The position numbers were made by a program, and so were the translations under genes. Below the pieces are notes generated by a model, which was given only the letters and a program-made list of their open reading frames with translations, did no database searches and was not told the DNA's origin. DNA of 54,613 nt from Cerioporus squamosus (lineage: Eukaryota; Basidiomycota; Agaricomycetes; Polyporales; Polyporaceae), in assembly GCA_022592435.1 (NCBI GenBank), contig JABYQS010000216.1:1-54613 (forward strand). Direction: 5' to 3'. Each line of letters starts with the position of its first letter. The stretch's first letter is position 1. Shown piece by piece: positions 1,936 through 48,238 of this stretch.

Positions 1936-2724
1936 GGGCATTGGGGCATGTAACGGCCTGTTATATCCTATTTCTACCACAGTCATTGTCCAAATAGGAC
2001 TTTGATATCCCAATTTGCCAAATCATCAACGCTTTTTGAAATCAGTACAACATAGCACTGCAATATATCCAGCAGATAAACTTCCGATATAACGGGCGTA
2101 CAATACTCCAAGTAATGTCATGATATAGCAGTCAGTATAAACGCAAAGTTACTTGGAATACAAAAAAGGTGTAACTAGGATATAGCCGGATGACAATTGG
2201 TAGCCATTTGTTGTTGAGTTTGGAAATATTGATCCCAGATTGAACCAGCAGTATCAACCTATAAATGAAAGTGATATTGCAGTGGTATTCGAAGTTTTTC
2301 TGGTGACAAAGAAGGGATATGTCACATCACTATTGTCCATATAAATTGCGAAAGAATGCAAAGTTTTGCTACTACATTTCTGCAATATGACAAGGGTCTA
2401 TATCGGAAGCCTATTGAGTAAATATACGAAAAAAACAATGCAATATCATTGGAAAGTCTTTGCAGTAAAACAGTGCCACTACTACCACCACTACTGTGGC
2501 CACTACTACCACTACCACCACTACTACAACTACTACCACTGCTACAACTACCTGCACCATTGCCACTACAACTGCTATTGCCTAACACTTGTACATGACA
2601 AAATGGAGGCTTAACAGGTTTACAGAGCCGATCTACCACCACACCGGCTTGAGGCTGTTAGCGTGGCAATCTGCAACGCTGCACAGGCTTGACATTCTTG
2701 GTGTGGCAATCTGAGCCACCGCAC
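1936..2724 (+). repeat. Left terminal inverted repeat
   Basis: It starts GGGCATTGGGGCATGTAACG and is the reverse complement of 47451-48238, with about one base of length difference over the first 672 bases and very few mismatches. The outer 530 bases are AT-rich compared with the surrounding DNA. The inner part holds a CTA/CCA-rich tract (2475-2575) and the first two array-like sub-units. The match stops in the middle of a repeat unit, at GAGCCACCGCAC. Confidence 0.9.
2475..2575. repeat. CTA/CCA trinucleotide-rich tract in the left TIR
   Basis: Imperfect CTACTACCACCA-type triplets. The reverse-complement copy is at about 47600-47705 in the right TIR. It yields Ser/Gly- or Tyr/His-rich reading frames that are not believable proteins. 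Confidence 0.85.
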
Positions 2725-5700
2725 GGGCTTGACATGCTTGCTTGCTGTTGGACGGGCTCCGCCAGCGACGACAGAGGCCTAACGGGTCGAGGGAGCTTAT
2801 CCGCACCGCCGCACAGGCTTGCAGTTCTCAATGTGGCAATCTGAGCCACCACACAGGCTTGACATTCTTGGTGTGGCAATCTGAGCCGCCGCACGGGCTT
2901 GACATGCCTGCTCGCTGTTGGACGGGCTCCGCCGGCGACAACAGAGGCCTAACGGGTCTAGGGAGCTTATCCGCACCGCCGCACAGGCCTGCGGTTCTCT
3001 GTGTGGCAATCTGAGAGCGACCGCACAGGCTTGACATTCTTGGTGTGGCAATCTGAGCCGCCGCACAGGCTTGACATGCCTGCTCGCTGTTGGACGGGCT
3101 CCGCCGGCGAAGACAGAGGCCTAACGGACAGGCCTGCAGTTCTCAGTGTGGCAATCTGAGAGCGACCCACAGGCTTGACATTCTTGGTGTGGCAATCTGA
3201 GCCGCCGCACGGGCTTGACATGCCTGCTCGCTGTTGGACGGGCTCCGCCGGCGACAACAGAGGCCTAACGGGTCTAGGGAGCTTATCCGCACCGCCGCAC
3301 AGGCCTGCGGTTCTCTGTGTGGCAATCTGAGAGCGACCGCACAGGCTTGACATTCTTGGTGTGGCAATCTGAGCCGCCGCACAGGCTTGACATGCCTGCT
3401 CGCTGTTGGACGGGCTCCGCCGGCGAAGACAGAGGCCTAACGGGTCTAGGGAGCTTATCCGCACCGCCGCACAGGCCTGCAGTTCTCTGTGTGGCAATCT
3501 GAGAGCGACCGCACAGGCTTGACATTCTTGGTGTGGCAATCTGAGCCACCGCACGGGCTTGACGTGCTTGCTTGCTGTTGGACGGGCTCCGCCAGCGACG
3601 ACAGAGGCCTAACGGGTCGAGGGAGCTTATCCGCACCGCCGCACAGGCTTGCAGTTCTCAATGTGGCAATCTGAGCCACCACACAGGCTTGACATTCTTG
3701 GTGTGGCAATCTGAGCCGCCGCACGGGCTTGAGATGCTTGCTTGCCGTTGGACGGGCTCCGCCGGCGACGACAGAGGCCTAATGGGTCGAGGGAGCTTAT
3801 CTGCACCGCCGCACAGGCTTGCAGTTCTCAGTGTGGCAATCTGAGAGCGACCGCACAGGCTTGACATTCTTGGTGTGGCAATCTGAGCCGCCGCACGGGC
3901 TTGACATGCCTTCTCGCTGTTGGAAGGGCTCCGCCGGTGACGACAGAGGCCTATCGGACAGGCCTGCAGTTCTCAGTGTGGCAATCTGAGAGCGACCACA
4001 CAGGCTTGACATTCTTGGTGTGGCAATCTGAGCCGCCGCACGGGCTTGACATGCCTGCTCGCTGTTGGACGGGCTCCGCCGGCGACAACAGAGGCCTAAC
4101 GGGTCTAGGGAGCTTATCCGCACCGCCGCACAGGCCTGCAGTTCTCTGTGTGGCAATCTGAGAGCGACCGCACAGGCTTGACATTCTTGGTGTGGCAATC
4201 TGAGCGGCCGCACGTGCTTGAGATGCTTGCTTGCCGTTGGACGGGCTCCGCCGGCGACGACAGAGGCCTAATGGGTCGAGGGAGCTTATCTGCACCGCCG
4301 CACAGGCTTGCAGTTCTCAGTGTGGCAATCTGAGAGCGACCGCACAGGCTTGACATTCTTGGTGTGGCAATCTGAGCCGCCGCACGGGCTTGAGATGCTT
4401 GCTCGCCGTTGGACGGGCTCCGCCGGCGACGACAGAGGCCTAATGGGTCTAGGGACCTTATCTGCACCGCCCCACAGGCCTGCGGTTCTCAGTGTGGCAA
4501 TCTGAGAGCGACCGCACAGGCTTGACATTCTTGGTGTGGCAATCTGAGCCACCGCACGGGCTTGACATGCTTGCTCGCTGTTGGAAGGGCTCCGCCGGTG
4601 ACGACAGAGGCCTAACGGACAGGCCTGCAGTTCTCAGTGTGGCAATCTGAGAGCGACCCACAGGCTTGACATTCTTGGTGTGGCAATCTGAGCCACCGCA
4701 CGGGCTTGACATGCTTGCTCGCTGTTGGAAGGGCTCCGCCGGTGACGACAGAGGCCTAACGGACAGGCCTGCAGTTCTCAGTGTGGCAATCTGAGAGCGA
4801 CCCACAGGCTTGACATTCTTGGTGTGGCAATCTGAGCCGCCGCACGGGCTTGACATGCCTGCTCGCCGTTGGACGGGCTCCGCCGGCGACAACAGAGGCC
4901 TAACGGGTCTAGGGAGCTTATCCGCACCGCCGCACAGGCCTGCGGTTCTCTGTGTGGCAATCTGAGAGCGACCGCACAGGCTTGACATTCTTGGTGTGGC
5001 AATCTGAGCCGCCGCACAGGCTTGACATGCCTGCTCGCTGTTGGACGGGCTCCGCCGGCGAAGACAGAGGCCTAACGGGTCTAGGGAGCTTATCCGCACC
5101 GCCGCACAGGCCTGCAGTTCTCTGTGTGGCAATCTGAGAGCGACCGCACAGGCTTGACATTCTTGGTGTGGCAATCTGAGCCACCGCACGGGCTTGACAT
5201 GCTTGCTTGCTGTTGGACGGGCTCCGCCAGCGACGACAGAGGCCTAACGGGTCGAGGGAGCTTATCCGCACCGCCGCACAGGCTTGCAGTTCTCAATGTG
5301 GCAATCTGAGCCACCACACAGGCTTGACATTCTTGGTGTGGCAATCTGAGCCGCCGCACGGGCTTGAGATGCTTGCTTGCCGTTGGACGGGCTCCGCCGG
5401 CGACGACAGAGGCCTAATGGGTCGAGGGAGCTTATCTGCACCGCCGCACAGGCTTGCAGTTCTCAGTGTGGCAATCTGAGAGCGACCGCACAGGCTTGAC
5501 ATTCTTGGTGTGGCAATCTGAGCCACCGCACGGGCTTGACATGCTTGCTCGCTGTTGGAAGGGCTCCGCCGGTGACGACAGAGGCCTATCGGACAGGCCT
5601 GCAGTTCTCAGTGTGGCAATCTGAGAGCGACCGCACAGGCTTGACATTCTTGGTGTGGCAATCTGAGCCACCGCACGGGCTTGACATGCTTGCTCGCTGT

Positions 5701-7138
5701 TGGAAGGGCTCCGCCGGTGACGACAGAGGCCTATCGGACAGGCCTGCAGTTCTCAGTGTGGCAATCTGAGAGCGACCACACAGGCTTGACATTCTTGGTG
5801 TGGCAATCTGAGCCGCCGCACGGGCTTGACATGCCTGCTCGCTGTTGGACGGGCTCCGCCGGCGACAACAGAGGCCTAACGGGTCTAGGGAGCTTATCCG
5901 CACCGCCGCACAGGCCTGCAGTTCTCTGTGTGGCAATCTGAGAGCGACCGCACAGGCTTGACATTCTTGGTGTGGCAATCTGAGCCGCCGCACAGGCTTG
6001 ACATGCTTGCTTGCCGTTGGACGGGCTCCGCCGGCGACGACAGAGGCCTAATGGGTCGAGGGAGCTTATCTGCACCGCCGCACAGGCTTGCAGTTCTCAG
6101 TGTGGCAATCTGAGAGCGACCGCACAGGCTTGACATTCTTGGTGTGGCAATCTGAGCCGCCGCACGGGCTTGAGATGCTTGCTCGCCGTTGGACGGGCTC
6201 CGCCGGCGACGACAGAGGCCTAATGGGTCTAGGGACCTTATCTGCACCGCCCCACAGGCCTGCGGTTCTCAGTGTGGCAATCTGAGAGCGACCGCACAGG
6301 CTTGACATTCTTGGTGTGGCAATCTGAGCCACCGCACGGGCTTGACATGCTTGCTCGCTGTTGGAAGGGCTCCGCCGGTGACGACAGAGGCGTATCGGAC
6401 AGGCCTGCAGTTCTCAGTGTGGCAATCTGAGAGCGACCACACAGGCTTGACATTCTTGGTGTGGCAATCTGAGCCGCCGCACGGGCTTGACATGCCTGCT
6501 CGCTGTTGGACGGGCTCCACCGGCGACAACAGAGGCCTAACGGGTCTAGGGAGCTTATCCGCACCGCCGCACAGGCCTGCAGTTCTCTGTGTGGCAATCT
6601 GAGAGCGACCGCACAGGCTTGACATTCTTGGTGTGGCAATCTGAGCGGCCGCACGGGCTTGAGATGCTTGCTTGCCGTTGGACGGGCTCTGCCGGCGACG
6701 ACAGAGGCCTAATGGGTCGAGGGAGCTTATCTGCACCGCCGCACAGGCTTGCAGTTCTCAGTGTGGCAATCTGAGAGCGACCACACAGGCTTGACATTCT
6801 TGGTGTGGCAATCTGAGCCGCCGCACGGGCTTGAGATGCTTGCTCGCCGTTGGACGGGCTCCGCCGGCGACGACAGAGGCCTAATGGGTCTAGGGACCTT
6901 ATCTGCACCGCCCCACAGGCCTGCGGTTCTCAGTGTGGCAATCTGAGAGCGACCGCACAGGCTTGACATTCTTGGTGTGGCAATCTGAGCCGCCGCACGG
7001 GCTTGACATGCCTGCTCGCCATTGGACGGGCTCCGCCGGTGACGACAGAGGCCTAACACGTCTAGGTAGCCTATCCGCACCGCCACACAGGCTTGCGGTT
7101 CTCAGTGTGGCAATCCACGCCACCGCACAGGCTTGACA
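2725..7138 (+). repeat. Left subterminal repeat array (145-172 bp units)
   Basis: Head-to-tail units carry the core GTGTGGCAATCTGAG, followed by CCGCACRGGCTTGACAT and then GCTCGCTGTTGGACGGGCTC. Long units (172 bp) include a GGGAGCTTATCCGCACCGCC segment; short units (145 bp) lack it. Higher-order copies are evident: sequence at about 3143-3900 recurs 1635 bp later, sequence at about 3901-4467 recurs 1780 bp later, and part of that recurs again after a further 661 bp. Both strands stay open in several frames only because the units repeat, so I do not call genes here. By analogy with CACTA subterminal repeats these could be binding sites for an element protein. Confidence 0.9.
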
Positions 7139-8101
7139 TTTCTCTCACATTGGGAGCTTTTGTTTGGTCCACCTCACCAGAAAGTCCTCTTGCCTGTCCA
7201 CCTCCAGGAAGGCGTCTGAGACGCGGTTTCTAGATGTCATGAGGCTATTATGAGCAGAGTTCAAACTGCAATGAAGGCACTGGCAGCGGTATGTGGGTGC
7301 ATGGACTTCGGGCTTGCAAAGGTGAATGGGTGGGCAACCGCTCTGGCTGTCCCACCACCGTGAGAAATAAAATGAGAAATAAAACACGCAATTGCGCAGG
7401 CTTTATGAAATGCAGCTACGCTAGATCGAACACCGAACAGCCACTTTGTACCCGTACTCACGCGGTAACAGCTAAGCCAAATAAGCACTGTCGCTGTTCT
7501 GTGTAGTTCATTCAAGACAACAGCTCGGGCTGGTATGCTGGGCGCGGACAGGCCTAAGTGGGGACTTGCCTCAGTGCATGACCACAACTCGCGTCGGCGC
7601 GTCTACGCTCGCCGTCGTCTCCGTGCTGTCTTATCACCCATGCAGTAGACTCTGGGCCACCTACTGGAACGAAGAAGAGCCGTCGCGCCAAAGTATTGGA
7701 GTATAGGCAATGAGCGAGGGTGTAGTTGTCGGGCGATGGCGAGCGGCGTATATGTGTCGCCGGGTGTATATGCGTCGCCACAGCTCACTCCACCGCTGCG
7801 CATCCACCCATAGTCTCCCCGGAGTCCTAAGACAGCTTATGGCACACACCTATAGGAACTTCACCACGCTACGGGCTCAATCGCGGGCATCCTGTACTTC
7901 GCAGACACGAGTCGATAGTAAACACTTTCTTCGGGATACATACAGAAGCCTGATAAACGGTACTTGAGGCGGAACCGCTGGGTGCGTCAAAAACCTCGCC
8001 AGGAGGGAAAAAGCTACCAGACGGTATGGGCGACACGTTAAACACTCTCCCGAGCCCTGTTGAGCATGTCCATATGCACCAGCATCGCATCCTGGAAGCG
8101 T
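7139..8101. other. Gene-free stretch after the left array
   Basis: The array ends at about 7138. I see no exon with family resemblance on either strand up to the end of the next gene. A short near-duplication (AATAAAATGAGAAATAAAAC) lies near 7365-7386. Confidence 0.4.
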
Positions 8102-10610: not shown

Positions 10611-10875
10611 GTCTCCCAGTTGAGACTACATAGCAACCAGGCCATCATATCAGATACGTATATGAGACAGATACAGATGATACTCTGCACATCGTGATTT
10701 GATGCACAGCGGTAAGCCGGACAGACTCGAACGCAACAGACCTCGAGAGGTATTACTATGACGTTCCCGGACGGTACTACGCCAAGCTCCGGATCCCGGT
10801 CAATGCATCGTTCGCCTTGGAATGCGAGTAGTTCAACAGGCGCTCTCGCAGCGTCTCCCACAAGCTTCGTAACCT

Positions 10876-12608
10876 CTAGAGAAGCCGAGGATCCTGAAGC
10901 TGAAGCTCGGGAGAGCGGTGCCGGTGGCGGTGCTGGCGTGGCACTCTTCGCAAGTCCTGCCCGTAAACACAGACTTGCCCACGTTGCGTGCATGGCCTGG
11001 AAGATGTGCGAAGTTCACCTCCCGCATGCCGTTCGCGATTAGAAAGTGATACTCACCTGCATTTCGGGGGTGTGCTGGGTAAAGGAGGTCCACATGCGAT
11101 CTTCCTTGCACGACAGAAGAGACAAGCCGGTGACGCTTTCTTCTTCTTCGAAGCAGGCGTGGCGGAGGACTTTCCCGACTCAAGTGCGAAGATGCTCTCA
11201 CCCGGGAGCAACGGGGTGGCTTCACGCGTATGCGGAGGCCTGCAGGTGGATGACGTTGATGGCTTTAAAGACGCAGAGCCACGCGAATCGACACACACAG
11301 TATCATGTGGTGCATGTGGTGTAGAATCCCGAGGGCGATCTTCCACCGGAGCGGTAGCATGAAACCCTCCAACATCAGGTCCCTGCCTTGGCAGACGTCC
11401 GAGTGCGCGGGTTGGAGGGCAGTGATTTGCGGCAGCGTTGCCTCCGCTTAGCGGATCGGCCGACTGAGGAACATGTGGTGGTGGTGACTTGTGTGGCTGA
11501 GTGGGCGAGGAACATCGCGGTGACGAGAGACTGTGTCCAGGCGAAGGGGATAGACGCGTCGGGGATAGACGCGTCTGATCCATATGATCTATTTGAGTAG
11601 GAAGACGGCAGAGAGGAGGTGGTGCGTGTTGGGGAGTGATTTCTACCGGATCGAGTGCCCCCTCGAGCGTGTAACTGCGATTGGAGCAAGGAGGTAGAGG
11701 TCGACTGGTATGTACCTGAGAGACGTAATCAAAATCGAAGTCCATGGGGATTGACATCGCGGCCTGTGGGAATGATTCAAGACTCAAGATGAACGAAGGC
11801 TGATATGGCATGGTGATGTTTATACGCAAAGTTGAACCTGAGGAACTCCGCATGACCTGCTGGGGGCGTCAGACGTAACGAAAACGAGGTAGCAGCATGT
11901 CAGACATAAAAGCCGTCATCGGAGGTAACATATTGACTTACGGTCGGTGTGAAGTTCCATGGGGAACTGGAGGGTTTGGTTGCATCAAAGTCAGATCGTG
12001 ACAGATCCGCGAAGACATCCACCGCTGCGTGCTGCTGGAAAGGGACTACCCCAGAGCTACAGTCGGCGGAAACGAGTGGTTCCGCGATCGGCAGGAGAGA
12101 TCGACTTGGTATATCTCGTGGATCAGTGGCCGCGTCGTTTGGGCAGGTCTTTCGGGAGTAGTCCTCGACCTGCGTAGCAAGCGCTTCCCTAATACGTGGG
12201 TGAGGATGTATGGAGAAGGAAGCATAGGGCATATGGGAGTGTACAACCAGGATCCTGTCAGACGCGGACGGCTGGCAGTGGTTTGGTCAGGGGGCACGCT
12301 GCGTTACTGGGTTACATACTGAAGATAAAACTTACTTGAAGCAGGGCCGCGGACCCCCGAGTATAACCATCAGTACGGGAGGATGTGGGGGGCGTTGGCA
12401 CAAGAATCGGGCTTCCAGCGGTGAGCGTCCGCCTTTCCGACGAAACGCCCCGAAGTGGATTCACTGACCGCACAGAGAGATGAGGTGAGTACCCTTGAAG
12501 GCGACCACCCGTAAACATGGAGACACGGAACACGATATCAAACTGGTACTTACCTGGCGGACGACGCCCACAATGTTCGCTTCGCTCCATGTGCTTGACA
12601 GAATACAA
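10876..12608 (-). CDS. Zn2Cys6 (Gal4-type) zinc-cluster protein with a C-terminal cluster
   Basis: Five exons splice in frame into about 480 residues: MERSEHCGRRPPG (start here or at 12608), YSPHLSVRSVNPLRG, PSASDRILVVHSH running on to MPYASFSIHPHPRIREAL, a long Pro/Ser-rich exon, and a final exon from about 10993 to the stop at 10876. The last junction completes the cluster: ACLFCRARKIAC, then CRPCTQRGQVC, giving C-x2-C-x6-C-x10-C-x2-C-x6-C, the canonical binuclear spacing. It is preceded by a KKKK basic tract. The family binds two Zn ions and DNA. A Pro/Ser-rich N terminus with the cluster near the C terminus is an arrangement I associate with agaricomycete proteins. It may regulate element or host genes, which is inference. 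Confidence 0.7.
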
Positions 12609-13471: not shown

Positions 13472-16400
13472 TCAGACGTGAGTCACGCCTTCGACAACCC
13501 ATTCCTTGTACTTTGCGACGGCGCTAACCCTGACGGTGAGCATATGTGAGACGACAAAGACATACGACGTACTTCACAATGGCGGGATCGTGTCCAAAAT
13601 CGTAAGGCTCTTCCCGAGCACGGAGATTGTCTTGTTCGACAGAGGATTGTTCGCCGTACCAGACGTCATCGTAGGCGTTGGCGGGAAGACGGGATACGGC
13701 ATGCGAAGTAGACCGCTTGTCGGAGATGTATCGAAGTCGGGGTTGAGAGCCACGCTTCTCTGCCTGGCTAGAAGTAGCTCGCCACAGGCGGTACAGGGCA
13801 TCGAGTGTACGGAGAAAGGTCGTGACACGCGCGTGTCTCCATGGCTTGACAAGGATGCGGAACCGTTTGAATGGCGCAGCTGTGTCCTCTTCATCCGAGC
13901 TCATCCCGTCGATGCCGAGCCTCTCCAGGATCCACACATGACGGAGCGTCGCCCGATAGCGACGCGCGATCTCATGGCGGCGGTGGAACAGCTGCGGGCG
14001 GTCGCGTCATTGTTGGGTTCAAACCAGAAGACGGACCACAAACCCTGTATTTCCGCTGGTAAGACAGCCCATCATCTTTGACGACTTCTTTGGCGTTGAA
14101 AGCGTTCCTGGTGCCCTGACCCCGACCCGTGCCTTTGCCCTTCGAAGACCCGGCAGCGCCCGATGCGTCTGCGTTAGCCGATGTCGCTTTCAGATGTCGC
14201 TGAAGAGTGCGGAAATGTGACTGGAACATGCGGTTGATCTTCGTTCTGCTCTTGCAATCATACCGGTTGCAGGCAAGGAAGTCATCGACGAACACTTTGA
14301 TTGCTGAAGCGTTCCAAGGAGCACCGGGTGTACTGGTGAGATCGAGACGGAAGGTGGCAACGTCGCAACAAGGTCCGTTGTCAGGTCGAAACCCTCGGAC
14401 TTCGTTCTCGTTGGCTAGCGCGGAAGGCGGGAAGGGGGTTCCCTTATCCTTGCGTTTAAGTAAGAGCAGCGCATGGGTTGCAACGTCGGCCTGGAAGAAG
14501 CCTGGGCTCAACAAACTGCAAGTCTAGTCATCGTGGACGCACTCACGGCGAGTTGGTTCTGTGCCTGTGTCCGCCGTTTGGTTCGCTTGGTGAGTTTCTC
14601 TGGCTCTTCGGAGTCTCCCTCATAGTCATCGTCCGGCTCGGGACCACCTTTCTGCTTGCCCACAGCAGCTCCCGAAGTGCGAGAGTTCGTGATCTCGGTG
14701 GTCATAGCACGGATCTCGGTGGACAGACCGCCGACTGCAACTGTCAGCAAGGCAAGGTCTTTCTTGCTAGCAGGAAGTCGATCCTATATCGTAATGAGAA
14801 AGACTTGTACCGATGCACGAGACCATGACTCACAGTATCATCGTCGGCTTCACCGTCTGACGCATCGGGATCATCGTGACCGCGTGCCTTCTGTGTTGCG
14901 GTAGAAGCGGGTCGAGTCTGAGATGGAGGGGGATTCTGTGACATGGGCGATGCAGCGGAGGTAGCAGCCGTTATCCTGGGACGCGGTTTGGGAGGGGATG
15001 ATGATGATGGACCTGGCGCGGCAGCAGAGGATTGGGCGTCGCTCCATCTTGGAGCTCGGTTCGTGTTGACTGATTGAGACTGCTTGCTAGCCGCTGCGTT
15101 CGACGCCATTGCAGCGCCATGCACCTTCTCCTTCTCCTTCGCTTTTCCCTTATTGACCTTGCCCTTCGCTTTGCCCTCCTCGAGCTTGTTCTTCTCCTTG
15201 AGCTTTTCGCCCCTCTCCTTCTCCTTACCCTTGTTGTTCTTCCCCTTCTTCCTCTCTGTGCCCCTCTGCGTCCCGGAGTCGGTCTTTGTCTGTGCCTGTG
15301 CCCGAATCGTCGCCCTACGAGCCTTGGTTGCGGACCGCGAGCGTGAGGTCTTCTCGTCTTCGTCGTCCTCGTCGTCCTCGTCCTTGTCGTCCTCCTCCTC
15401 GTCCTCCTCGTCCTCCTCCTCCTCCTCGTCCTCCTCCTCGTCCTCGTCCTCCTCCTCGTCCTCCTCCTCCTCCTCCTCCTCCTCTTCGTCCTCCTCCTCG
15501 TCGTTCCCTTTGTCCGCGCCAAGGCCTTGATGGCCGTCATCGTCGTAGTTCGCACCCTCCGCACCCTTCCTCTGACCATCGTCTGAGCTTTGGCCTCGGC
15601 GTCCGCCTCTATATCCACGAGCTCCGTTGCGCTCACCCCCATCCTCATCTGGGTTACCACTCTCGGACCCATCAACGTCTTCCTCCTCCTCTTCGTCCTC
15701 GTCGTGACCACGTCGACGGTTCCGGCCTACGTCCTCGACCTCGCGCTTCCTCTTGGACCGCGCTTTGCCTTCAGTACCCGGGGGCGCCGTAACAGTCGAC
15801 TCGCTTCCTGACTCGGTCTCGTCCTCATCTGACGAGTGGGTACTTGGCTCTACTTTAACTTGGAGAACAACAGACTTCGACTGTCGGTCGGCATCATCGG
15901 CGACGTCCACTTCCATAGCATACGGATCCGGACCGAACATAGATTGGAAGTCGACCCAAGGGACATCGTCTTCTTCGCGAGTCGACTGGAGCGAGTCGTC
16001 TCTCGCTGCAGACGGAGATGAGCCATGGGGGGTAGTCGACGGGTTAGGATTGCGGCGAATAGATGGGGATAGTTGAGTAGACGACGATCTCGACCTCCCT
16101 GCGCTAGACCGTGATGCACGTTCCTTATCGATATTGGGAGTGTTTGGCGCGCATCCGGAACCTTTCCCCTGTCGTACGCAGTCCGATGCAGACTTGCCAT
16201 CGGAAGTGACGGGAGAAGGACGACCATCCACTCCATGACGATTAGTGCTGGTCGCAGGCTGGGGGGTTGAAGAACTCGGGCTAGCAGAGGCGAGATGACT
16301 CTTCGCGGTCCGCGGGTTCGAACGACCTTTTGACGATGACGGTGGGCGCGGTGACGATGACGGTTGGCGCGGTGACGATGACGGTGGGCGCGGTGACGAT

Positions 16401-18596: not shown

Positions 18597-18687
18597 ACTA
18601 TGAGCTTGTGAGAAGAAGCTGGGGGGAGGATGTAAAGCGAACGAGAAGAGGTCAGAGTACGGGGACAGGTCGAGAAAGGCGAGATGA

Positions 18688-20118: not shown

Positions 20119-20559
20119 TTCCGTAGATCTAATTGACCACGCACCCAGAGCCAGGAAGCGAGAGAGAAAATCGTCTGCGATTCTTGTAGGATTTCGGAGC
20201 CTGCGAAGGAAGAGGAACAGGTCGGTCCGCGGTCAAGTGGCTCATGAGGTGAGCGCTCTCACCTCCGAAGCAGGTGTCACGGCGTTACTCGGTTTAGCGC
20301 TGGTTTGCGCCAGGAGGGATTGAATCCCAGAGTTCGCCACAAGCACGAGGGTCTCTCGTCGACGTATGGCGGGCATGTCTGACGACTACTGAGTTCACGA
20401 GAGGAGAGTATGAGGGACAGGCTGCGCTCAAGAGACGACGACTGACAAAGGCCTTTACCAAAAACCACGTCGTTGCATTGTTCGCTCATGTGGCGAGAGC
20501 ATGGCAGAGACTCGGAGCCGCACGAAGTGACATCCTGATAGCCAGAAAACTACATTGAA

Positions 20560-24166: not shown

Positions 24167-24170
24167 GACG

Positions 24171-25502: not shown

Positions 25503-25530
25503 AGAGGGCTGGCCCTTGCGACGCTGACCA

Positions 25531-29382: not shown

Positions 29383-29566
29383 AGGACGCTCATGGCGGCG
29401 GCCAGGCAGCTAGCACGTTGACGCGCGCCTGATGCGAGGACTCCCCAATCCGGGGGTTCGCCGCCGTGCAGGATATCTTTTGACAGCAATTGCCAGCGAA
29501 GAAGGCGAGCGCAAATACCCACATTACCGAACGAGTTCTATGAGACAGATCGATATATTCGTGTAC

Positions 29567-29580
29567 ATATATATATATAT
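29567..29580. repeat. (AT)n microsatellite
   Basis: Seven AT dinucleotides in the spacer between the copy-1 WD40 gene and its upstream neighbour. Confidence 0.8.
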
Positions 29581-29612
29581 GACTACAGGGGCACCACCGA
29601 ATTCTCTAGGAT

Positions 29613-30773: not shown

Positions 30774-30944
30774 TACAGTACTCAGCTTTGGAGTGGCGTG
30801 CGTGGGGCGTGGCAGAGCCGTGCGATCAGCTCAATCATACGCAGGTATTGGCGTGGGCGGCTGGCCGCGCCGGCGTGAGAAACTAACGGTGACATTGACC
30901 ATGAGGAGAGCTCAGGCTGTATAGCACGCTACAAGCTGGACGGT

Positions 30945-32696: not shown

Positions 32697-33417
32697 GGTC
32701 TGGGGATGCGCAGGGAGAGAGCAGACCAAAGCGAGACACTCAACTATGCTCACCGCGTGGCAACCGCAAGGCAGCCAAACCACACGGGATTGACGTCATC
32801 GCCATGTCGTGCAGGCAGGTCGTGGTACCTGACGGGAATTCGAGCGATGAGCAACCTGAGATACCTAAGACTCCGCGACAACGGCTACGGGAAGGATAGG
32901 CTGACTCTCGTATCCGGAGGGGCGATTTCGACTCCGGGTGAAGCTGAGGGTGAGGTGTGGCGTGACGCGCAGATTGGCACTGCGCACCTAGACATTGCCT
33001 GACAGGTACACGGGATGATGCAGGGCATCCGACGAGGGCAAAGCTTAGCTCGGCGTCGGAGGGACGCACGTGTGAGTCTGTGACCGCATCCCGTCGTGTC
33101 CGCACTCCATATTCCGCGTGAGCGAATCCCTCGACACAACATTGCACGACGTGCATTTTGCAGTCCCTTCAAGTCTGTGGAGTAAGGCGGCAGACGCTAT
33201 CGTGATACACGAGACGGGAGTCAACAGAGAGAGTGATAACTATTGATGCACAGCACAAGTAGTCGTACAAGGACACTTTTAGTTACTTTAACAGGATGGT
33301 ACGCGCTTAGCTCTCCGCAACCACAAACCATAACCCTACGGCCGCGGCGGTTCTACAGAGTAAAAGAGTCTGAGACATGCAGTCGATGAGCGGTGAATTG
33401 GAACGAGGCTGACGTAC
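32697..33417. other. Spacer upstream of WD40 copy 2
   Basis: No coding exon is supported. It probably holds the promoter of the WD40 gene and the 3' end of the gene at 33418. Confidence 0.35.
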
Positions 33418-36312: not shown

Positions 36313-38837
36313 TCAAGGAGATTTCAAGCCAGCCCACGCCTTCTTAGGGACCCTCATCGTCGCTACGCGGTAGTCTCCGCGCAGGCGATGCACCACGTCA
36401 ACGAAGACAGGAATATCCTCGTCGGGCAGGGTCGACTCCATCAAGACCACGGCGGTGTGCATGTATTCGGGGGAGTCCAAGGACAGACTGCGCCTGTCAC
36501 CGGGCAGCAGTAGGATGTGCCTGCGTGTTATATGAGTAATCTGTCGGGTTGCGGCCGGTGAAGCATGACTCACTCCATATTGCAATGAGTGACCAGCTCC
36601 AGAAACGAGTGTGAAAAACGAGACTGCGGCCAGTCGCATAGCTGGCAATGCCAACGCGAACGAACTCTGGCAGCCGTGGCCGTCTCCTCTCGGTCAGAAT
36701 ACTCGACGAGCTTCACCTTATCGGAGACCTTCGGGCAAGTCTTGACCCAGCGGACCTGATGTCCGTCGTGGACATGGAACGTGTGATGGACCTGCCGCGT
36801 TCGTCGTGGCACACGTTAGCGAGCGTTGCATGACGTTAATGAATCACCAACCGCCCGACGCCAGCCCATGACAACCATGACTTTGTCGACAACGCTACAG
36901 GTCGAGCATGCAAGCCGGACTGATTCGGCCTTCGCGTTAGATGCCCCAGTCACATCCAATCCAGCAGCCGCCCATACGGAACGAACGACATCGGAGCACG
37001 GACGCAGTGTAGCGGGCGACCACTGCTTGAGTCCGCGGTTGTGAATGAGGAAGATCCGATTGAGCATGTCAACGCCTTCAGTGATGATTGGAGTGTAGGC
37101 GCCGTCGATGAGGGGAGCCGAAGGCGGATTGAGACTGCGCCACTCGTAATCGCGGGGATAACAGCACTGATGCTGTATAGCTAGCAAGCCGGGAACAAGC
37201 TCCTCGCAGCGAGTGCACCAGAACAACGCCTGCTGAGAAGACAAGGGAGAAGGCCGAGCGGACATGGACCGCGTTGTGATGGTCAACGCGGTTGGCCGAG
37301 TGAAGGCCGAGTTGGCGTCGATACCGGGTAGGAGTGCAAGGACAGCGCTCTCCCTGAACTGGCGCCAATCGTTAACGAAGGAAGGGACACTATTGATGTA
37401 CGATGACGGTGGTATGGAAATGTCGCGGTCGAGGTCGATGAAGTTCATCACGACTTGCAAGTCCATGAGATCGAGGGCGCACGGCCAGACATCGTTCGCG
37501 TGATGTGGGTGCGACAGCATGTACCTCTCCAAGGCATCGTCGAGGTTCTTCAGCCGTAGGAGCTTGACGTCGACATCGCGCTGGCGGTTCTCGAGGACCT
37601 TCCGGCCTTCCAGGGCCTCCTTAAGCCGGGGAAGCGTTCTCTTCCACTCTAGTATCAACATGTGAGATGAGCATAGCAAGGGAGCGTCAAAGAGCGCCTT
37701 ACCTCGCTCAGACAACGGCTCTGGCTTATCCACGAACGCCCGGAGGTCGGCGGGTAGACCTTCGAGCTGGATCCCAAGCGTTGTCAACTCGCGCAGATAC
37801 CCGAGTTCCATCACCCTCGCACGGATGCTGATACTTCGTTTTTAGCGGGGGCATGCACGGCGGAGGATGACAACTCACTCTAAGTAACGCTTTAGCTGAA
37901 TCTGAGCGATGCGGTCTGCCTCGCGATTGTTCATCAATTCTTGCCAGTCTTCACACAGGTCCGCGTGCTGGGAGATGATATCTCAACCACTGTATCTCAG
38001 GTATGAGGACATTACGCACCTCCTGGCGGGCCGTAGTCGCTGCTTTGAACTCGCGCACGACGTCGACGCGTGCTACCTCCGAAGCGTTCATGATGCGCTC
38101 CCGGAAGCAAAGCACATCGGGGAGGTGGAAGACAGTTTCCTCTACCTCCTCGCCGTCTGCGGAGCATTGACAAGTGAGCTGACGACAGAAGCAACCGACA
38201 CAAGGAGCGACATACCTTTGACAACCATACGGTAGTAGCAGGGGAGAACATCCTCAATCTCACCAGCGAAGAGCGTCTTGTACTCGCCGTCGGGAAGACC
38301 ATGGAAGGGATCTTCGATTGTGGTCCTAAGCACCGCCATTAATAACAGTGAGGATATGGCGGCGCCGTGACTGGGACGTACTGTTTTGGTTCGCAATCGA
38401 AGCAGTAACGCACGTAGAACGCCCAAATGGGGACGCGGGTGGACGCATCAACCCGCAGGCAAACTGTGCAAGAAGCATCGTACATGAACGAAGCGAACTG
38501 CATCTCAGTCTGCCACGAGGGGCAGGCGGGGAGACCGTCGGCGTTGTCGCGCGCTCGCTTCCAGTAGACCGCACATTGTCGAAGGCGCAGGGAGGTGTGT
38601 TGCTCTTTGTTGGTACGCGCTAGATTGACGAGTTCGTCTGGCTTGAGGTGCCCGTAGATCTGAACGTCCAACGAGAGGTGAGGAGAGCGCGCTGAGGACC
38701 AAAAAGAACGCAAACAACAAAGAACTCACCTCGACATGGAGGTCGTACGGTAAACCTGACCAATTAAAAGACGGCGGGGGAGCCAATGCAGCTCTGCGGG
38801 CACGGGCTTTCTTGCGGGCGACGGAAGAGGGCGACAT
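36313..38837 (-). CDS. F-box protein with Cys-rich motifs
   Basis: ATG at 38837 (MSPSSVARKKARARRAALAP) leads into an F-box-like start, LPYDLHVEIYGHLKPDELVN and LARTNKEQHTSL. A C-x2-C...C-x2-C pair follows (DASCTVCLR ... YCFDCEPKQ). Further exons give TTIEDPFHGLPDGEYKTLFA, a helical region (RIAQIQLKRYLEIRARVMEL), LFWCTRCEELVPGLLAIQHQ and CSTCSVVD. A late exon has VRWVKTCPKVSDKVKLVEYS and WHCQLCDW. The protein ends RVPKKAWAGLKSP with the stop at 36313. F-box proteins recruit substrates to SCF ubiquitin ligases, and agaricomycetes have hundreds of this layout. About eight exons splice without frame breaks. Its presence inside a transposon is unusual. Confidence 0.7.
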
Positions 38838-39821
38838 CGAAGACGTACAAAGGGGAGAAGGTTGGAGTCGTCGGTAGAGGAAGACAAGTCGCACCAGGGA
38901 GAAACGTACCGTTTTGTAGGACAACCGCTCCCTGTAGACAAAGAACTCTTTCAATTGCCGCATTAGTGGAAAGCGGGACCGACAGGCCTGCTCGCCACGT
39001 GCAGGAGACATGCGTCGAGGGTCGTGTTGCGATAGATCTGACGACAGGCGGCTTGAATATAGGACGCAGGAATTGCAACGCTGGAAGAGATGTTGTAAGC
39101 TCAAGACGACGACATTAGACACGCAGGGGGAAGAAGAGGAGTAGAAGACAGGTCGGCGAGCAGCACCGGCCACGGATGCGGTCGCAATACTACGCGCGCG
39201 CTCAGCCCTACCCGCGGGTCCTGCCAGAGATGCTCGAGATGCTCGAGAATCGGATGACAGCCGTATGCTCACCTGCTCATCTTCTGCCAAGGAAGTGGGG
39301 ATACTTACGTTCAGGCGAGGTGAAACCCCATATAAAAGGTCTCACTAGGACCCTGAAATCGTGAGTTACCTCTTGACGAGAGTAGAATAGCATGAGAATA
39401 GCAGTACCTGAGTGGGGTTGAGAGCATTTCAATACTTCAAGGTGAGGCCAACCTGGACGACCAGTCACCAGTTACGATGCAATCGCTGCGCAGTGCATAT
39501 CGTAGGATTATCACTGGCTACTTGCTTAACAAACCAATACTCTGCAGTGACGTCCACGGGATGTCAGTCAGTATAAGTAGACGGCAGAGAGTGGGCCAAA
39601 CATTCGCGAGCATTACTTACAGGTGTCCCAGACTGCGACGTCTGTCTCAGTAGCTCTTGCGAACATGAAGAGGAGGGGGGAGGAGGGGAGGAGGAGGAGG
39701 AGGAGGAGGAGGAGGAGGAGGAGGAGGGAGTTTGCCAGCGCTGCGCGCGAAATGCGCGCTCGTCCACTGATCGGGAGGCCGGCCCGTAAGTATTTCACCG
39801 GCATTCGCAATGGATGACGGT
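38838..39821. other. Spacer with a GGA microsatellite
   Basis: No gene is seen. A purine (GGA)n tract spans about 39669-39730. Confidence 0.5.
39669..39730. repeat. (GGA)n microsatellite
   Basis: About 60 bases of near-pure GGA/GGGGA purine repeat on the plus strand. Confidence 0.9.
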
Positions 39822-39823
39822 TA

Positions 39824-40543: not shown

Positions 40544-40545
40544 TA

Positions 40546-42127: not shown

Positions 42128-45100
42128 GCTTGAGACTTTGAGCACACTGATCTGCGCCGCCGCACAGGCATGACAATCTTGCTTGCTGCCAGAGTAACAC
42201 AGTGGCTTGACCACCGCACGGGCTTGACATGCTTGCTCGCTGTTGGAAGGGCTCCGCCGGTGACGACAGAGGCCTATCGGACAGGCCTGCAGTTCTCAGT
42301 GTGGCAATCTGAGAGCGACCACACAGGCTTGACATTCTTGGTGTGGCAATCTGAGCCACCGCACGGGCTTGACATGCTTGCTCGCTGTTGGAAGGGCTCC
42401 GCCGGTGACGACAGAGGCCTATCGGACAGGCCTGCAGTTCTCAGTGTGGCAATCTGAGAGCGACCGCACAGGCTTGACATTCTTGGTGTGGCAATCTGAG
42501 CGGCCGCACGGGCTTGAGATGCTTGCTTGCCGTTGGACGGGCTCCGCCGGCGACGACAGAGGCCTAATGGGTCGAGGGAGCTTATCTGCACCGCCGCACA
42601 GGCTTGCAGTTCTCAGTGTGGCAATCTGAGAGCGACCGCACAGGCTTGACATTCTTGGTGTGGCAATCTGAGCCGCCGCACGGGCTTGACATGCTTGCTC
42701 GCTGTTGGAAGGGCTCCGCCGGTGACGACAGAGGCCTAATGGGTCGAGGGAGCTTATCTGCACCGCCGCACAGGCTTGCAGTTCTCAGTGTGGCAATCTG
42801 AGAGCGACCGCACAGGCTTGACATTCTTGGTGTGGCAATCTGAGCCGCCGCACGGGCTTGAGATGCTTGCTCGCCGTTGGACGGGCTCCGCCGGCGACGA
42901 CAGAGGCCTAATGGGTCTAGGGACCTTATCTGCACCGCCCCACAGGCCTGCGGTTCTCAGTGTGGCAATCTGAGAGCGACCGCACAGGCTTGACATTCTT
43001 GGTGTGGCAATCTGAGCCACCGCACGGGCTTGACATGCTTGCTCGCTGTTGGAAGGGCTCCGCCGGTGACGACAGAGGCCTATCGGACAGGCCTGCAGTT
43101 CTCAGTGTGGCAATCTGAGAGCGACCGCACAGGCTTGACATTCTTGGTGTGGCAATCTGAGCCGCCGCACGGGCTTGAGATGCTTGCTTGCCGTTGGACG
43201 GGCTCCGCCGGCGACGACAGAGGCCTAATGGGTCGAGGGAGCTTATCTGCACCGCCGCACAGGCTTGCAGTTCTCAGTGTGGCAATCTGAGAGCGACCGC
43301 ACAGGCTTGACATTCTTGGTGTGGCAATCTGAGCCACCGCACGGGCTTGACATGCTTGCTCGCTGTTGGAAGGGCTCCGCCGGTGACGACAGAGGCCTAT
43401 CGGACAGGCCTGCAGTTCTCAGTGTGGCAATCTGAGAGCGACCACACAGGCTTGACATTCCTGGTGTGGCAATCTGAGCCACCGCACGGGCTTGACATGC
43501 TTGCTCGCTGTTGGAAGGGCTCCGCCGGTGACGACAGAGGCCTATCGGACAGGCTTGCAGTTCTCAATGTGGCAATCTGAGAGCGACCGCACAGGCTTGA
43601 CATTCTTGGTGTGGCAATCTGAGCGGCCGCACGGGCTTGAGATGCTTGCTTGCCGTTGGACGGGCTCCGCCGGCGACGACAGAGGCCTAATGGGTCGAGG
43701 GAGCTTATCTGCACCGCCGCACAGGCTTGCAGTTCTCAGTGTGGCAATCTGAGAGCGACCGCACAGGCTTGACATTCTTGGTGTGGCAATCTGAGCCACC
43801 GCACGGGCTTGACATGCTTGCTCGCTGTTGGAAGGGCTCCGCCGGTGACGACAGAGGCCTATCGGACAGGCCTGCAGTTCTCAGTGTGGCAATCTGAGAG
43901 CGACCACACAGGCTTGACATTCCTGGTGTGGCAATCTGAGCCACCGCACGGGCTTGACATGCTTGCTCGCTGTTGGAAGGGCTCCGCCGGTGACGACAGA
44001 GGCCTATCGGACAGGCTTGCAGTTCTCAATGTGGCAATCTGAGAGCGACCGCACAGGCTTGACATTCTTGGTGTGGCAATCTGAGCGGCCGCACGGGCTT
44101 GAGATGCTTGCTTGCCGTTGGACGGGCTCCGCCGGCGACGACAGAGGCCTAATGGGTCGAGGGAGCTTATCTGCACCGCCGCACAGGCTTGCAGTTCTCA
44201 GTGTGGCAATCTGAGAGCGACCGCACAGGCTTGACATTCTTGGTGTGGCAATCTGAGCCGCCGCACGGGCTTGACATGCCTTCTCGCTGTTGGACGGGCT
44301 CCGCCGGCGACGACAGAGGCCTAACGGGTCTAGGGAGCTTATCCGCACCGCCGCACAGGCCTGCAGTTCTCTGTGTGGCAATCTGAGAGCGACCGCACAG
44401 GCTTGACATTCTTGGTGTTGCAATCTGAGCCACCGCACGGGCTTGAGATGCTTGCTCGCCGTTGGACGGGCTCCGCCGGCGACGACAGAGGCCTAATGGG
44501 TCTAGGGACCTTATCTGCACCGCCCCACAGGCCTGCGGTTCTCAGTGTGGCAATCTGAGAGCGACCGCACAGGCTTGACATTCTTGGTGTGGCAATCTGA
44601 GCCACCGCACGGGCTTGACATGCTTGCTCGCTGTTGGAAGGGCTCCGCCGGTGACGACAGAGGCCTATCGGACAGGCCTGCAGTTCTCAGTGTGGCAATC
44701 TGAGAGCGACCACACAGGCTTGACATTCTTGGTGTGGCAATCTGAGCCACCGCACGGGCTTGACATGCTTGCTTGCTGTTGGACGGGCTCCGCCGGCAAC
44801 GACAGAGGCCTAATGGGTCTAGGGACCTTATCTGCACCGCCCCACAGGCCTGCGGTTCTCAGTGTGGCAATCTGAGAGCGACCGCACAGGCTTGACATTC
44901 TTGGTGTGGCAATCTGAGCCACCGCACGGGCTTGACATGCTTGCTCGCTGTTGGAAGGGCTCCGCCGGCGACAACAGAGGCCTAACGGGTCTAGGGAGCT
45001 TATCCGCACCGCTGCACAGGCTTGCAGTTCTCAATGTGGCAATCTGAGCCACCACACAGGCTTGACATTCTTGGTGTGGCAATCTGAGCCGCCGCACGGG

Positions 45101-47395
45101 CTTGAGATGCTTGCTTGCCGTTGGACGGGCTCCGCCGGCGACGACAGAGGCCTAATGGGTCGAGGGAGCTTATCTGCACCGCCGCACAGGCTTGCAGTTC
45201 TCAGTGTGGCAATCTGAGAGCGACCGCACAGGCTTGACATTCTTGGTGTGGCAATCTGAGCCGCCGCACGGGCTTGAGATGCTTGCTCGCCGTTGGACGG
45301 GCTCCGCCGGCAACGACAGAGGCCTAATGGGTCTAGGGACCTTATCTGCACCGCCCCACAGGCCTGCGGTTCTCAGTGTGGCAATCTGAGAGCGACCGCA
45401 CAGGCTTGACATTCTTGGTGTGGCAATCTGAGCCACCGCACGGGCTTGACATGCTTGCTCGCTGTTGGAAGGGCTCCGCCGGTGACGACAGAGGCCTATC
45501 GGACAGGCCTGCAGTTCTCAGTGTGGCAATCTGAGAGCGACCGCACAGGCTTGACATTCTTGGTGTGGCAATCTGAGCCGCCGCACGGGCTTGAGATGCT
45601 TGCTTGCCGTTGGACGGGCTCCGCCGGCGACGACAGAGGCCTAATGGGTCGAGGGAGCTTATCTGCACCGCCGCACAGGCTTGCAGTTCTCAGTGTGGCA
45701 ATCTGAGAGCGACCGCACAGGCTTGACATTCTTGGTGTGGCAATCTGAGCCACCGCACGGGCTTGACATGCTTGCTCGCTGTTGGAAGGGCTCCGCCGGT
45801 GACGACAGAGGCCTATCGGACAGGCCTGCAGTTCTCAGTGTGGCAATCTGAGAGCGACCACACAGGCTTGACATTCCTGGTGTGGCAATCTGAGCCACCG
45901 CACGGGCTTGACATGCTTGCTCGCTGTTGGAAGGGCTCCGCCGGTGACGACAGAGGCCTATCGGACAGGCTTGCAGTTCTCAATGTGGCAATCTGAGAGC
46001 GACCGCACAGGCTTGACATTCTTGGTGTGGCAATCTGAGCGGCCGCACGGGCTTGAGATGCTTGCTTGCCGTTGGACGGGCTCCGCCGGCGACGACAGAG
46101 GCCTAATGGGTCGAGGGAGCTTATCTGCACCGCCGCACAGGCTTGCAGTTCTCAGTGTGGCAATCTGAGAGCGACCGCACAGGCTTGACATTCTTGGTGT
46201 GGCAATCTGAGCCACCGCACGGGCTTGACATGCTTGCTCGCTGTTGGAAGGGCTCCGCCGGTGACGACAGAGGCCTATCGGACAGGCCTGCAGTTCTCAG
46301 TGTGGCAATCTGAGAGCGACCACACAGGCTTGACATTCCTGGTGTGGCAATCTGAGCCACCGCACGGGCTTGACATGCTTGCTCGCTGTTGGAAGGGCTC
46401 CGCCGGTGACGACAGAGGCCTATCGGACAGGCTTGCAGTTCTCAATGTGGCAATCTGAGAGCGACCGCACAGGCTTGACATTCTTGGTGTGGCAATCTGA
46501 GCGGCCGCACGGGCTTGAGATGCTTGCTTGCCGTTGGACGGGCTCCGCCGGCGACGACAGAGGCCTAATGGGTCGAGGGAGCTTATCTGCACCGCCGCAC
46601 AGGCTTGCAGTTCTCAGTGTGGCAATCTGAGAGCGACCGCACAGGCTTGACATTCTTGGTGTGGCAATCTGAGCCGCCGCACGGGCTTGACATGCCTTCT
46701 CGCTGTTGGACGGGCTCCGCCGGCGACGACAGAGGCCTAACGGGTCTAGGGAGCTTATCCGCACCGCCGCACAGGCCTGCAGTTCTCTGTGTGGCAATCT
46801 GAGAGCGACCGCACAGGCTTGACATTCTTGGTGTTGCAATCTGAGCCACCGCACGGGCTTGAGATGCTTGCTCGCCGTTGGACGGGCTCCGCCGGCGACG
46901 ACAGAGGCCTAATGGGTCTAGGGACCTTATCTGCACCGCCCCACAGGCCTGCGGTTCTCAGTGTGGCAATCTGAGAGCGACCGCACAGGCTTGACATTCT
47001 TGGTGTGGCAATCTGAGCCACCGCACGGGCTTGACATGCTTGCTCGCTGTTGGAAGGGCTCCGCCGGTGACGACAGAGGCCTATCGGACAGGCCTGCAGT
47101 TCTCAGTGTGGCAATCTGAGAGCGACCACACAGGCTTGACATTCTTGGTGTGGCAATCTGAGCCACCGCACGGGCTTGACATGCTTGCTCGCTGTTGGAA
47201 GGGCTCCGCCGGTGACGACAGAGGCCTATCGGACAGGCCTGCAGTTCTCAGTGTGGCAATGTGAGAGCGACCGCACAGGCTTGACATTCTTGGTGTGGCA
47301 ATCTGAGCCACTGCACAGGCTTGACATGCCTGCTCGCTGTTGGACGGGCTCCGCCAGCGACGACAGAGGCCTAACAGGTCTAGGGAGCTTATCGG
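42128..47395 (+). repeat. Right subterminal repeat array, same orientation as the left array
   Basis: The units and core words are the same as in the left array and are also read on the plus strand (GTGTGGCAATCTGAG, then CCGCACRGGCTTGACAT). The first units (42128-42215) are diverged. A block at about 42730-44770 recurs almost unchanged 2416 bp downstream (45146-47186), and a 462-bp higher-order unit is tandemly doubled at 43243-44166 and again in the second block. The array reverses direction at about 47395-47450, where it meets the terminal inverted repeat. Confidence 0.9.
43243..44166 (+). repeat. 462-bp higher-order unit, two tandem copies
   Basis: 43243-43704 and 43705-44166 appear virtually identical. 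Each holds short (145) and long (172) units. The same pair is present about 2416 bp further right. Confidence 0.8.
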
Positions 47396-47450
47396 CACCA
47401 CATCAAGCCTGTGCGGTGGCTTGGATCGCAAAGCTAATAGTGTCAAGCCT

Positions 47451-48238
47451 GTGCGGTGGCTCAGATTGCCACACCAAGAATGTCAAGCCTGTGCAGCGTT
47501 GCAGATTGCCACGCTAACAGCCTCAAGCCCGTGTGGTGGTAGATCGGCTCTGTAAACCTGTTAAGCCTCCATTTTGTCATGTACAAGTGTTAGGCAGTAG
47601 CAGTTGTAGTGGCAATGGTGCAGGTAGTTGTAGCAGTGGTAGTAGTTGTAGTAGTGGTGGTAGTGGTAGTAGTGGCCACAGTAGTGGTGGTAGTAGTGGC
47701 ACTGTTTTACTGCAAAGACTTTCCAATGATATTGCATTGTTTTTTCGTATATTTACTCAATAGGCTTCCGATATAGACCCTTGTCATATTGCAGAAATGT
47801 AGTAGCAAAACTTTGCATTCTTTCGCAATTTATATGGACAATAGTGATGTGACATATCCCTTCTTTGTCACCAGAAAAACTTCGAATACCACTGCAATAT
47901 CACTTTCATTTATAGGTTGATACTGCTGGTTCAATCTGGGATCAATATTTCCAAACTCAACAACAAATGGCTACCAATTGTCATCCGGCTATATCCTAGT
48001 TACACCTTTTTTGTATTCCAAGTAACTTTGCGTTTATACTGACTGCTATATCATGACATTACTTGGAGTATTGTACGCCCGTTATATCGGAAGTTTATCT
48101 GCTGGATATATTGCAGTGCTATGTTGTACTGATTTCAAAAAGCGTTGATGATTTGGCAAATTGGGATATCAAAGTCCTATTTGGACAATGACTGTGGTAG
48201 AAATAGGATATAACAGGCCGTTACATGCCCCAATGCCC
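47451..48238 (-). repeat. Right terminal inverted repeat
   Basis: This is the reverse complement of 1936-2724, ending CCCCAATGCCC just before CGG. It includes the mirrored trinucleotide tract (about 47600-47705) and the mirrored first array sub-units. Confidence 0.9.

What the first reader, a model, noticed from the sequence alone, without database searches (positions are those of the whole stretch)
1936..48238. A 46-kb CACTA-like giant transposon carrying ten or more multi-exon genes
Inverted ends of about 790 bp, a CGG direct repeat at both edges, subterminal repeat arrays and an intact Tnp2 transposase all point to one unit. Its size and its load of WD40, F-box, zinc-cluster and ubiquitin-fold genes go far beyond a classic CACTA element and recall cargo-carrying giant elements such as ascomycete Starships, but with a different transposase class. 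I do not know of such a basidiomycete element being described.
Basis: partly seen in the sequence, partly recalled or inferred. Interest (0 to 1): 0.92.

Follow-up and report, generated by a model that had tools for sequence, protein, structure and literature searches.

The report
Giant CACTA transposon in a mushroom
A polypore mushroom carries CACTA-type DNA elements of about 46 and 60 kilobases that share a set of conserved genes; the 60-kb one sits at a site where a second sequence of the same genome has none, so such elements likely move as single units much larger than the CACTA elements in the papers searched.

Summary
The window is a whole contig (C131) of Cerioporus squamosus, a polypore. 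The 800-bp inverted ends, the subterminal arrays and the Tnp2 transposase core are real. The "CGG duplication" is not: family ends read CACCGGGGGCATT, so CGG is part of the terminus and the element is 1930-48243 (46,314 bp). Its true flanks are TCT and AAT, no target-site duplication, and they match two different contigs (C579, C38). This copy is therefore likely a recombinant or an assembly join of two near-identical copies.

The giant unit survives because of a sister found here: C39:14878-74999, 60,122 bp, same first 13 bases, outer 1,004 bp of its TIRs identical, TGT/TGT duplication, and an empty site with one TGT on contig C559. Seven gene blocks are shared by the two elements at 43-74% amino-acid identity (an eighth weakly), with third codon positions near random: a conserved backbone (transposase, gene A, two WD40 genes, others). 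A 3.28-kb derivative with the window's ends sits on C445 with a TCT duplication. The transposase model resembles RAG1. Giant EnSpm elements with accessory genes are known from algae (15-20 kb in the passages read), so this is a new, much larger variant.

The parts
1930..2734 (+). left terminal inverted repeat, starting CACCGGGGGCATTGGGGC; holds a simple ACT/ACC-rich stretch (2442-2545) that matches the C39 element's TIR at 74%
47441..48243 (-). right terminal inverted repeat; its terminal G run is one base short in this contig (C982 has the full run)
2663..7140 (+). left subterminal array (periods near 40, 145 and 172 bp), 53 motif copies
42211..47399 (+). right subterminal array, same orientation as the left one, 64 motif copies
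20563..24989 (-). Tnp2 (EnSpm/CACTA) transposase gene over several ORFs; catalytic core 22487-24235, C-terminal parts 21491-22120 and 20563-21525
13527..14783 (-). gene A: conserved companion gene, often on the same contig as a Tnp2 gene; candidate subterminal-repeat-binding (TnpA-like) protein, untested
31646..32795 (-). WD40 gene 2, shared with the C39 element (51-61% in the main matches)
28228..30830 (-). WD40 gene 1 block, shared with the C39 element (42-49%), there moved and on the other strand
25152..25607 (-). small conserved gene beside the transposase, weakly ubiquitin-like
19000..20232 (-). conserved gene of unknown function (63% over 100 aa with C39)
17802..18293 (-). weakly matching ORF (24% over 80 aa, E 2e-4), at the same place in the gene order of C39
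33339..33935 (-). conserved gene of unknown function (43% over 127 aa with C39)
10950..11868 (-). Zn2Cys6 cluster gene (two exons joined by hand; lower end approximate); no counterpart among the C39 matches
36816..39341 (-). gene block with a weak F-box (joined by hand); no clear counterpart among the C39 matches
1927..1929 (.). left flank TCT, at the edge of a multi-copy repeat; the C579 allele goes on GCTAGTCG here
48244..48246 (.). right flank AAT; counterpart on C38 from about 83,555 on

Best explanation
The window holds what is likely one 46,314-bp giant EnSpm/CACTA-type DNA transposon of the mushroom Cerioporus squamosus, with 800-bp inverted ends beginning CACCGGGGGC, predicted to move as a cut-and-paste unit driven by its own RAG1-like Tnp2 transposase. 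Shown: ends of this or its sister family occur as pairs at three loci (46 kb, 60 kb, 3.3 kb), two of them with a 3-bp target-site duplication, one (60 kb) with an empty site. Shown: the two giant copies share seven clear gene blocks and one weak one; seven of the eight keep order and strand; codon patterns are those expected of purifying selection. Inferred: the transposase pairs the two CAC..GTG ends, cuts, and inserts at a 3-bp target; the long subterminal arrays are bound by an accessory protein, for which gene A is the best candidate (as TnpA in maize Spm); the WD40 and other backbone genes serve the element; the JmjC, Zn-cluster and F-box-like genes are variable cargo. Inferred: the window copy lacks a matching duplication because two copies recombined or were joined in assembly.
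Against: The window copy has no target-site duplication and its flanks match two contigs. Only one clean giant insertion with an empty site is in hand, in one genome, and C559 reaches only 118 bases to the left of that site. No transposition was observed. Ends of the other Tnp2/gene A loci were not seen. Synonymous divergence is saturated: NG86 gave no dS in 9 of 13 segments and YN00 none in 13, so selection rests on codon-position identity, which protein alignment favours. Gene A's model was poor (pLDDT 54.9) and found no fold match; its role is a guess by analogy. Strand and order of gene A and Tnp2 vary between loci.
Confidence: 0.85

Rival explanations
1. C131 is an assembly join of two near-identical giant copies: one inserted at TCT in a C579-like locus, the other at AAT in a C38-like locus. 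The element is real and giant, but this contig's two flanks come from different copies.
For: No duplication; flanks match two contigs. Short contigs C730 and C982 repeat parts of C131: C730 has no substitution in about 450 and 500 unique bases, while its array fits C131 badly in register (about 93% over the first 1.5 kb).
Against: The two junctions this predicts were not found: the TIR search listed only five ends, and C38's side left of the site was found only on C38. C730 and C982 may be leftover pieces of the same copy; C982's array fits C131 in register (8 mismatches, 13 gaps in 3,858 columns).
Confidence: 0.5
2. The window copy is a genuine recombinant: exchange between two insertions, or transposition using ends of two copies, joined two loci and left unmatched flanks.
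For: Unmatched 3-bp flanks beside otherwise good ends, and two loci joined; another copy with the same ends exists (C445).
Against: No reciprocal product found; cannot be told from an assembly join with these data.
Confidence: 0.35
3. Two small CACTA derivatives like C445 happen to flank an unrelated 35-kb stretch of host genes; no giant unit exists.
For: A 3.28-kb two-ended derivative exists whose ends nearly equal the window's; no duplication at C131.
Against: Seven of eight shared blocks keep order and strand in the 60-kb C39 element, which has a duplication and an empty site; the transposase lies inside; two derivatives would leave four ends, and the search found two in the window.
Confidence: 0.05

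Closest known systems
EnSpm/CACTA transposons of plants (Spm/En 8.3 kb, Tam1 17 kb, soybean Tgmt* 20.5 kb; PMC2613891, passages)
   Same: CACTA-type class, 3-bp duplication, Tnp2 transposase, many subterminal repeats, deletion derivatives
   Different: 46-60 kb instead of 8-20 kb; TIRs of 800-1,000 bp instead of 13 bp in Tgmt*; seven or more conserved gene blocks
Giant EnSpm elements of algae (Chondrus crispus 16-20 kb with 4-5 ORFs, as told in PMC6431247; Ectocarpus EnSpm up to 15.2 kb, PMC12477816; passages)
   Same: EnSpm class, enlarged, accessory genes
   Different: Two to four times shorter in these accounts; not fungi; gene content not compared here
Fungal EnSpm with TET/JBP genes, and Plavaka (PMC12730594, passages)
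   Same: Fungal; 5'-CAC..GTG-3' termini and 3-bp duplications for EnSpm; C(2)C and H(3-4)H motifs; may carry an epigenetic-modifier gene
   Different: No such size in the passages read; no TET/JBP hit among the ORFs scanned, but a JmjC ORF in C39
Starships (Ascomycota; also reported in the basidiomycete Tremella fuciformis, PMC13066641, passages)
   Same: Giant, multi-gene, present or absent between sequences of one genome
   Different: Starships use a tyrosine recombinase captain; here a DDE transposase resembling RAG1
Giant KDZ elements (Ectocarpus 30.3 kb, Chlamydomonas 31.7 kb; PMC12477816, passages) and Teratorn (41-182 kb; PMC6431247, passages)
   Same: Giant elements moved by a transposase of their own
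   Different: Other transposase superfamilies; Teratorn is a herpesvirus fusion, and no viral domain turned up among the ORFs scanned here

Membership tests
EnSpm/CACTA | Tnp2-type DDE transposase (PF02992) | tested here: met
   50.7 bits (window) and 66.8 bits (C39), cut-off 28.6
EnSpm/CACTA | 5'-CAC..GTG-3' termini | tested here: met
   CACCGGGGGCATT at both ends of C445 and C39, the left end of C131 (right end one G short), and one end each on C982 and C197; rule from PMC12730594
EnSpm/CACTA | family makes a 3-bp target-site duplication | tested here: met
   TGT at C39 with empty site on C559; TCT at C445, whose ends are the window's
EnSpm/CACTA | this very copy bears a matching 3-bp duplication (marks a simple insertion rather than the family) | tested here: not met
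   TCT against AAT; flanks match two contigs
EnSpm/CACTA | catalytic D residues with C(2)C and H(3-4)H motifs | tested here: met
   D247, D344, C363, C366, H437 invariant or nearly so in 30 sequences; which letters are catalytic is my reading of the known motif, and the last acidic residue was not assigned
EnSpm/CACTA | subterminal repeats | tested here: met
   53 and 64 motif copies in the window; 44 and 33 (29 direct, 4 inverted) in C39; none in between
EnSpm/CACTA | second protein binding the subterminal repeats (TnpA-like) | not testable with these tools
   gene A is a candidate by linkage only; its model is poor
Plavaka | PF18759 above cut-off; TGT..ACA or CATCA..TGATG termini | tested here: not met
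   22.7 and 18.6 bits against 26.3; termini CACCG; terminus rule from PMC12730594
Starship | tyrosine recombinase captain (DUF3435) at one end | tested here: inconclusive
   no such hit in 37 ORFs of the window element and 20 of C39 scanned against Pfam; not every exon was scanned

The most novel reading that the evidence does not exclude
Polypore mushrooms harbour their own class of giant mobile elements, the basidiomycete counterpart of Starships but built on a RAG1-related CACTA transposase: 46-60 kb units with kilobase-long inverted ends and a conserved backbone of seven or more genes (transposase, gene A, two WD40 genes and others), plus variable cargo such as a JmjC chromatin gene, active recently enough to differ between the haplotypes of one strain, and spread over several genera.
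Probability: 0.6. Interest if true: 0.9.

Novelty: new variant of a known kind. Interest (0 to 1): 0.82.

Why it matters
It suggests that a classic cut-and-paste DDE transposase can carry units of 46-60 kb in a eukaryote, with a gene set kept by selection rather than random captured fragments. The 60-kb copy comes with a natural empty site, so transposition, its size limit and the role of each backbone gene become testable. It also offers a vehicle for gene movement in basidiomycetes, where giant cargo elements are scarcely known, and a RAG1-like enzyme working across unusually long distances.

Tried and rejected
CGG as target-site duplication: rejected, it is part of the terminus.

Plavaka: rejected on Pfam cut-off and termini.

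Nested retrotransposons as the cause of the size: a 4-kb interior query found only C131 and one 72% match on C90; the rest of the interior was not tested well, because the two 17-kb queries did not list even C131 itself, so their absences mean nothing.

C100 as the other side of the left insertion: it diverges before the site; led nowhere.

Structure of gene A: pLDDT 54.9, 4 PDB matches at E up to 10, none at 0.001. Pfam gave it no family here, though seven of its 12 relatives carry a precomputed PF26792, a model my scan did not return. The transposase profile found no solved structure by sequence below E 0.15; NCBIfam gave nothing useful. TM-scores to RAG1 are low (0.25-0.31 among the 43 matches at E 0.001 or better).

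Linkage count: I used 27 of 39 contigs with a transposase match and dropped 12 with short or weak matches (C298, C199, C28, C87, C149, C260, C2, C236, C492, C279, C146, C201); none of the 12 carries gene A. Of 18 contigs with gene A I dropped C730 as a repeat of C131. The 60-kb limit was set after seeing the distances (5.5 to 59.8 kb), and some contigs may be two haplotypes of one locus, so the binomial value (about 1e-11 with 1.0 expected) is only a guide.

The script failed to place the second Zn-cluster exon; its coordinate is read off and approximate.

Literature: 10 of 10 searches used. No CACTA/EnSpm element of this size appeared in the listings or in the passages read; smaller fungal ones did (PMC12730594, PMC12810828). 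The library lacks most subscription journals. Nine papers were opened, passages (and one outline) only. The original paper on Chondrus was not read, only told by PMC6431247.
Full report
What the window is. The window equals contig C131 (54,613 bases) of an assembly of 54.0 Mb in 988 contigs. A deposited protein with 100% identity to part of the transposase region, on a contig of 54,613 bases, is labelled Cerioporus squamosus (P0021), a polypore mushroom.

Ends. The inverted ends are there and nearly identical. A search of the genome with the first 265 bases listed five places: both window ends, an inverted pair on C445 3.3 kb apart, and one on C982. C982 repeats the right end and right flank of the window; two flank segments differ by indels only (0 mismatches in 1,103 and 1,265 columns), the whole flank by 17 mismatches and 66 gaps in 6,422 columns. 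I take it for the same locus, with indel errors in one contig. The pattern CACCGGGGGCATTGGGGC is exact at the window's left end, both C445 ends and C982; the window's right end is one G short. The element spans 1930-48243, 46,314 bp. C445 is flanked TCT/TCT; the window is flanked TCT/AAT.

Flanks of the window copy. The left flank (window 424-1929) matches C579 at 99% and stops exactly at 1929, where C579 goes on GCTAGTCG. The last 62 bases of the left flank are part of a repeat with 30 further places listed, and its continuation across the site is repeated too. The right flank matches C38 at 98% from window 48251 on; C38 reads AACAATCATAAG there, which would fit an AAT target with a small length difference. 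The pieces of C579 and C38 that I compared do not hold the other flank, and the two flank searches have no contig in common other than C131 in their listings (that was cut at 40 matches). C730 (14,031 bases) repeats the window from about 6033 with no substitution in the unique stretches looked at (about 450 and 500 bases) but with a differing array. Two near-identical copies merged by the assembler, or a true recombinant, both fit; I cannot decide.

The 60-kb sister. Scanning the genome for the 18-base terminus with up to 3 mismatches gave 52 places against 34 for the reversed control, so most of the 3-mismatch places are chance; the seven with 0-2 mismatches include an inverted pair on C39, 60 kb apart, and one end on C197. 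C39:14878-74999 is 60,122 bp, bounded TGT|CACCGG and CCGGTG|TGT; its TIRs are 1,173 bp at 98.2%, the outer 1,004 bp identical. It has a 54-bp subterminal array at each end, both pointing the same way as in the window, with only the part inside the right TIR flipped. C197 carries the right end of another copy of this family (93% over 3.9 kb) next to other sequence. A query made of C39's two flanks joined with one TGT matched C559:1-519 in one piece. The first 300 letters of C559 differ from the joined flanks at one base, and the joint lies after base 118. This is the empty site: a 60,122-bp stretch present in one sequence and absent in another of the same genome, with the 3-bp duplication expected of CACTA insertion. 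The same query found no empty site for C445.

Shared backbone. ORF-to-ORF comparison of the window and C39 finds the transposase in several ORFs (55-74% in its three main ones, 44% in the first), 19000-20232 (63% over 100 aa), gene A at 13527-14783 (53-59% in its main parts), 25152-25607 (40-55%), WD40-2 at 31646-32795 (51-61% in the main matches), WD40-1 at 28228-30830 (42-49%), 33339-33935 (43%), and weakly 17802-18293 (24% over 80 aa). Seven of these eight blocks keep order and strand; WD40-1 is moved and flipped in C39. In 13 of 13 coding segments aligned, the second codon position is more alike (0.60-0.87) than the third (0.24-0.47), with amino-acid identity 0.43-0.74 over 74-486 codons. 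dS was saturated in 9 of 13 and the second method failed in all 13, and protein alignment favours such a pattern; still, identity of this kind at randomised third positions is what purifying selection leaves. Not matched between the two: in the window a Zn2Cys6 gene and a weak F-box gene; in C39 a JmjC ORF (PF02373, E 4.7e-9) and a piece like the dehydrogenase E1 component, below cut-off.

Gene A and other loci. Gene A matches lie on 18 contigs of this genome; without C730, 12 of 17 also carry a Tnp2 gene (27 Tnp2 contigs used), at 5.5 to 59.8 kb. The protein search found 12 relatives: three of C. squamosus itself, four of L. tigrinus, one of Collybia nuda, four without a species name. WD40-2 found 7: two of C. 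squamosus, three of L. tigrinus, two unnamed. The clusters give matching longest-contig lengths, which suggests that gene A and WD40-2 are neighbours on two L. tigrinus contigs, and Tnp2 and gene A on a 62,171-base contig. So the backbone is probably shared beyond this genus. Whether all these loci are giant elements is unknown, since their ends could not be fetched.

How it likely works. By analogy with Spm (TNPD as transposase, TNPA binding the subterminal repeats; passages of PMC2613891) the Tnp2 protein would pair the CAC..GTG ends, cut and insert at 3 bp, with an accessory protein on the arrays. Gene A is the best candidate for that protein because of its linkage; this is untested. C445, with both ends and one array within 3.3 kb, looks like a deletion derivative moved in trans.

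Known or new. Giant EnSpm elements with accessory genes are in print for algae: 16-20 kb in Chondrus (as told in PMC6431247) and up to 15.2 kb in Ectocarpus (PMC12477816). Soybean has a 20.5-kb CACTA (PMC2613891). The fungal EnSpm and Plavaka account (PMC12730594) gives no such size in the passages read. For basidiomycetes the giant elements met in the searches are Starships in Tremella (PMC13066641). None of the ten searches listed a CACTA element of 46-60 kb. I therefore rate it a new variant of a known kind, strong in size and in its conserved gene set.

Noticed in passing
G000:C39:26621-27852(-) (L045:8621-9852): A JmjC-domain ORF in the 60-kb element, without a match in the window; may act against chromatin silencing, as TET/JBP genes are thought to do in other fungal transposons.
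   Followed up: partly
G000:C39:67839-68906: An ORF stretch not far from the right array resembling the dehydrogenase E1 component, below Pfam's cut-off; perhaps a captured host gene fragment.
   Followed up: partly
G000:C445:300155-303434 (L006): A 3.28-kb two-ended derivative with the window's ends, one array and a TCT duplication.
   Followed up: yes
window 48244-54613 against C982 and C38: The right flank differs from the overlapping contig C982 by 66 gaps but only 17 mismatches in 6,422 columns, so one of the contigs likely carries uncorrected indel errors that break reading frames.
   Followed up: partly
window 1868-1929: The left flank ends in a repeat with 30 other places listed, four pairs of them about 6 kb apart on one contig, as in a retrotransposon's terminal repeats.
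   Followed up: no
window 35069-35898: 72% DNA match to C90:308131-309035, the only other place found for a 4-kb interior query; nature unknown.
   Followed up: no
window 7180-7404: A stretch of about 225 bases repeated at 83-85% in seven places on six other contigs.
   Followed up: no
G000:C38:81314-89752: The right flank's counterpart contains a locally duplicated stretch (73% between copies).
   Followed up: no
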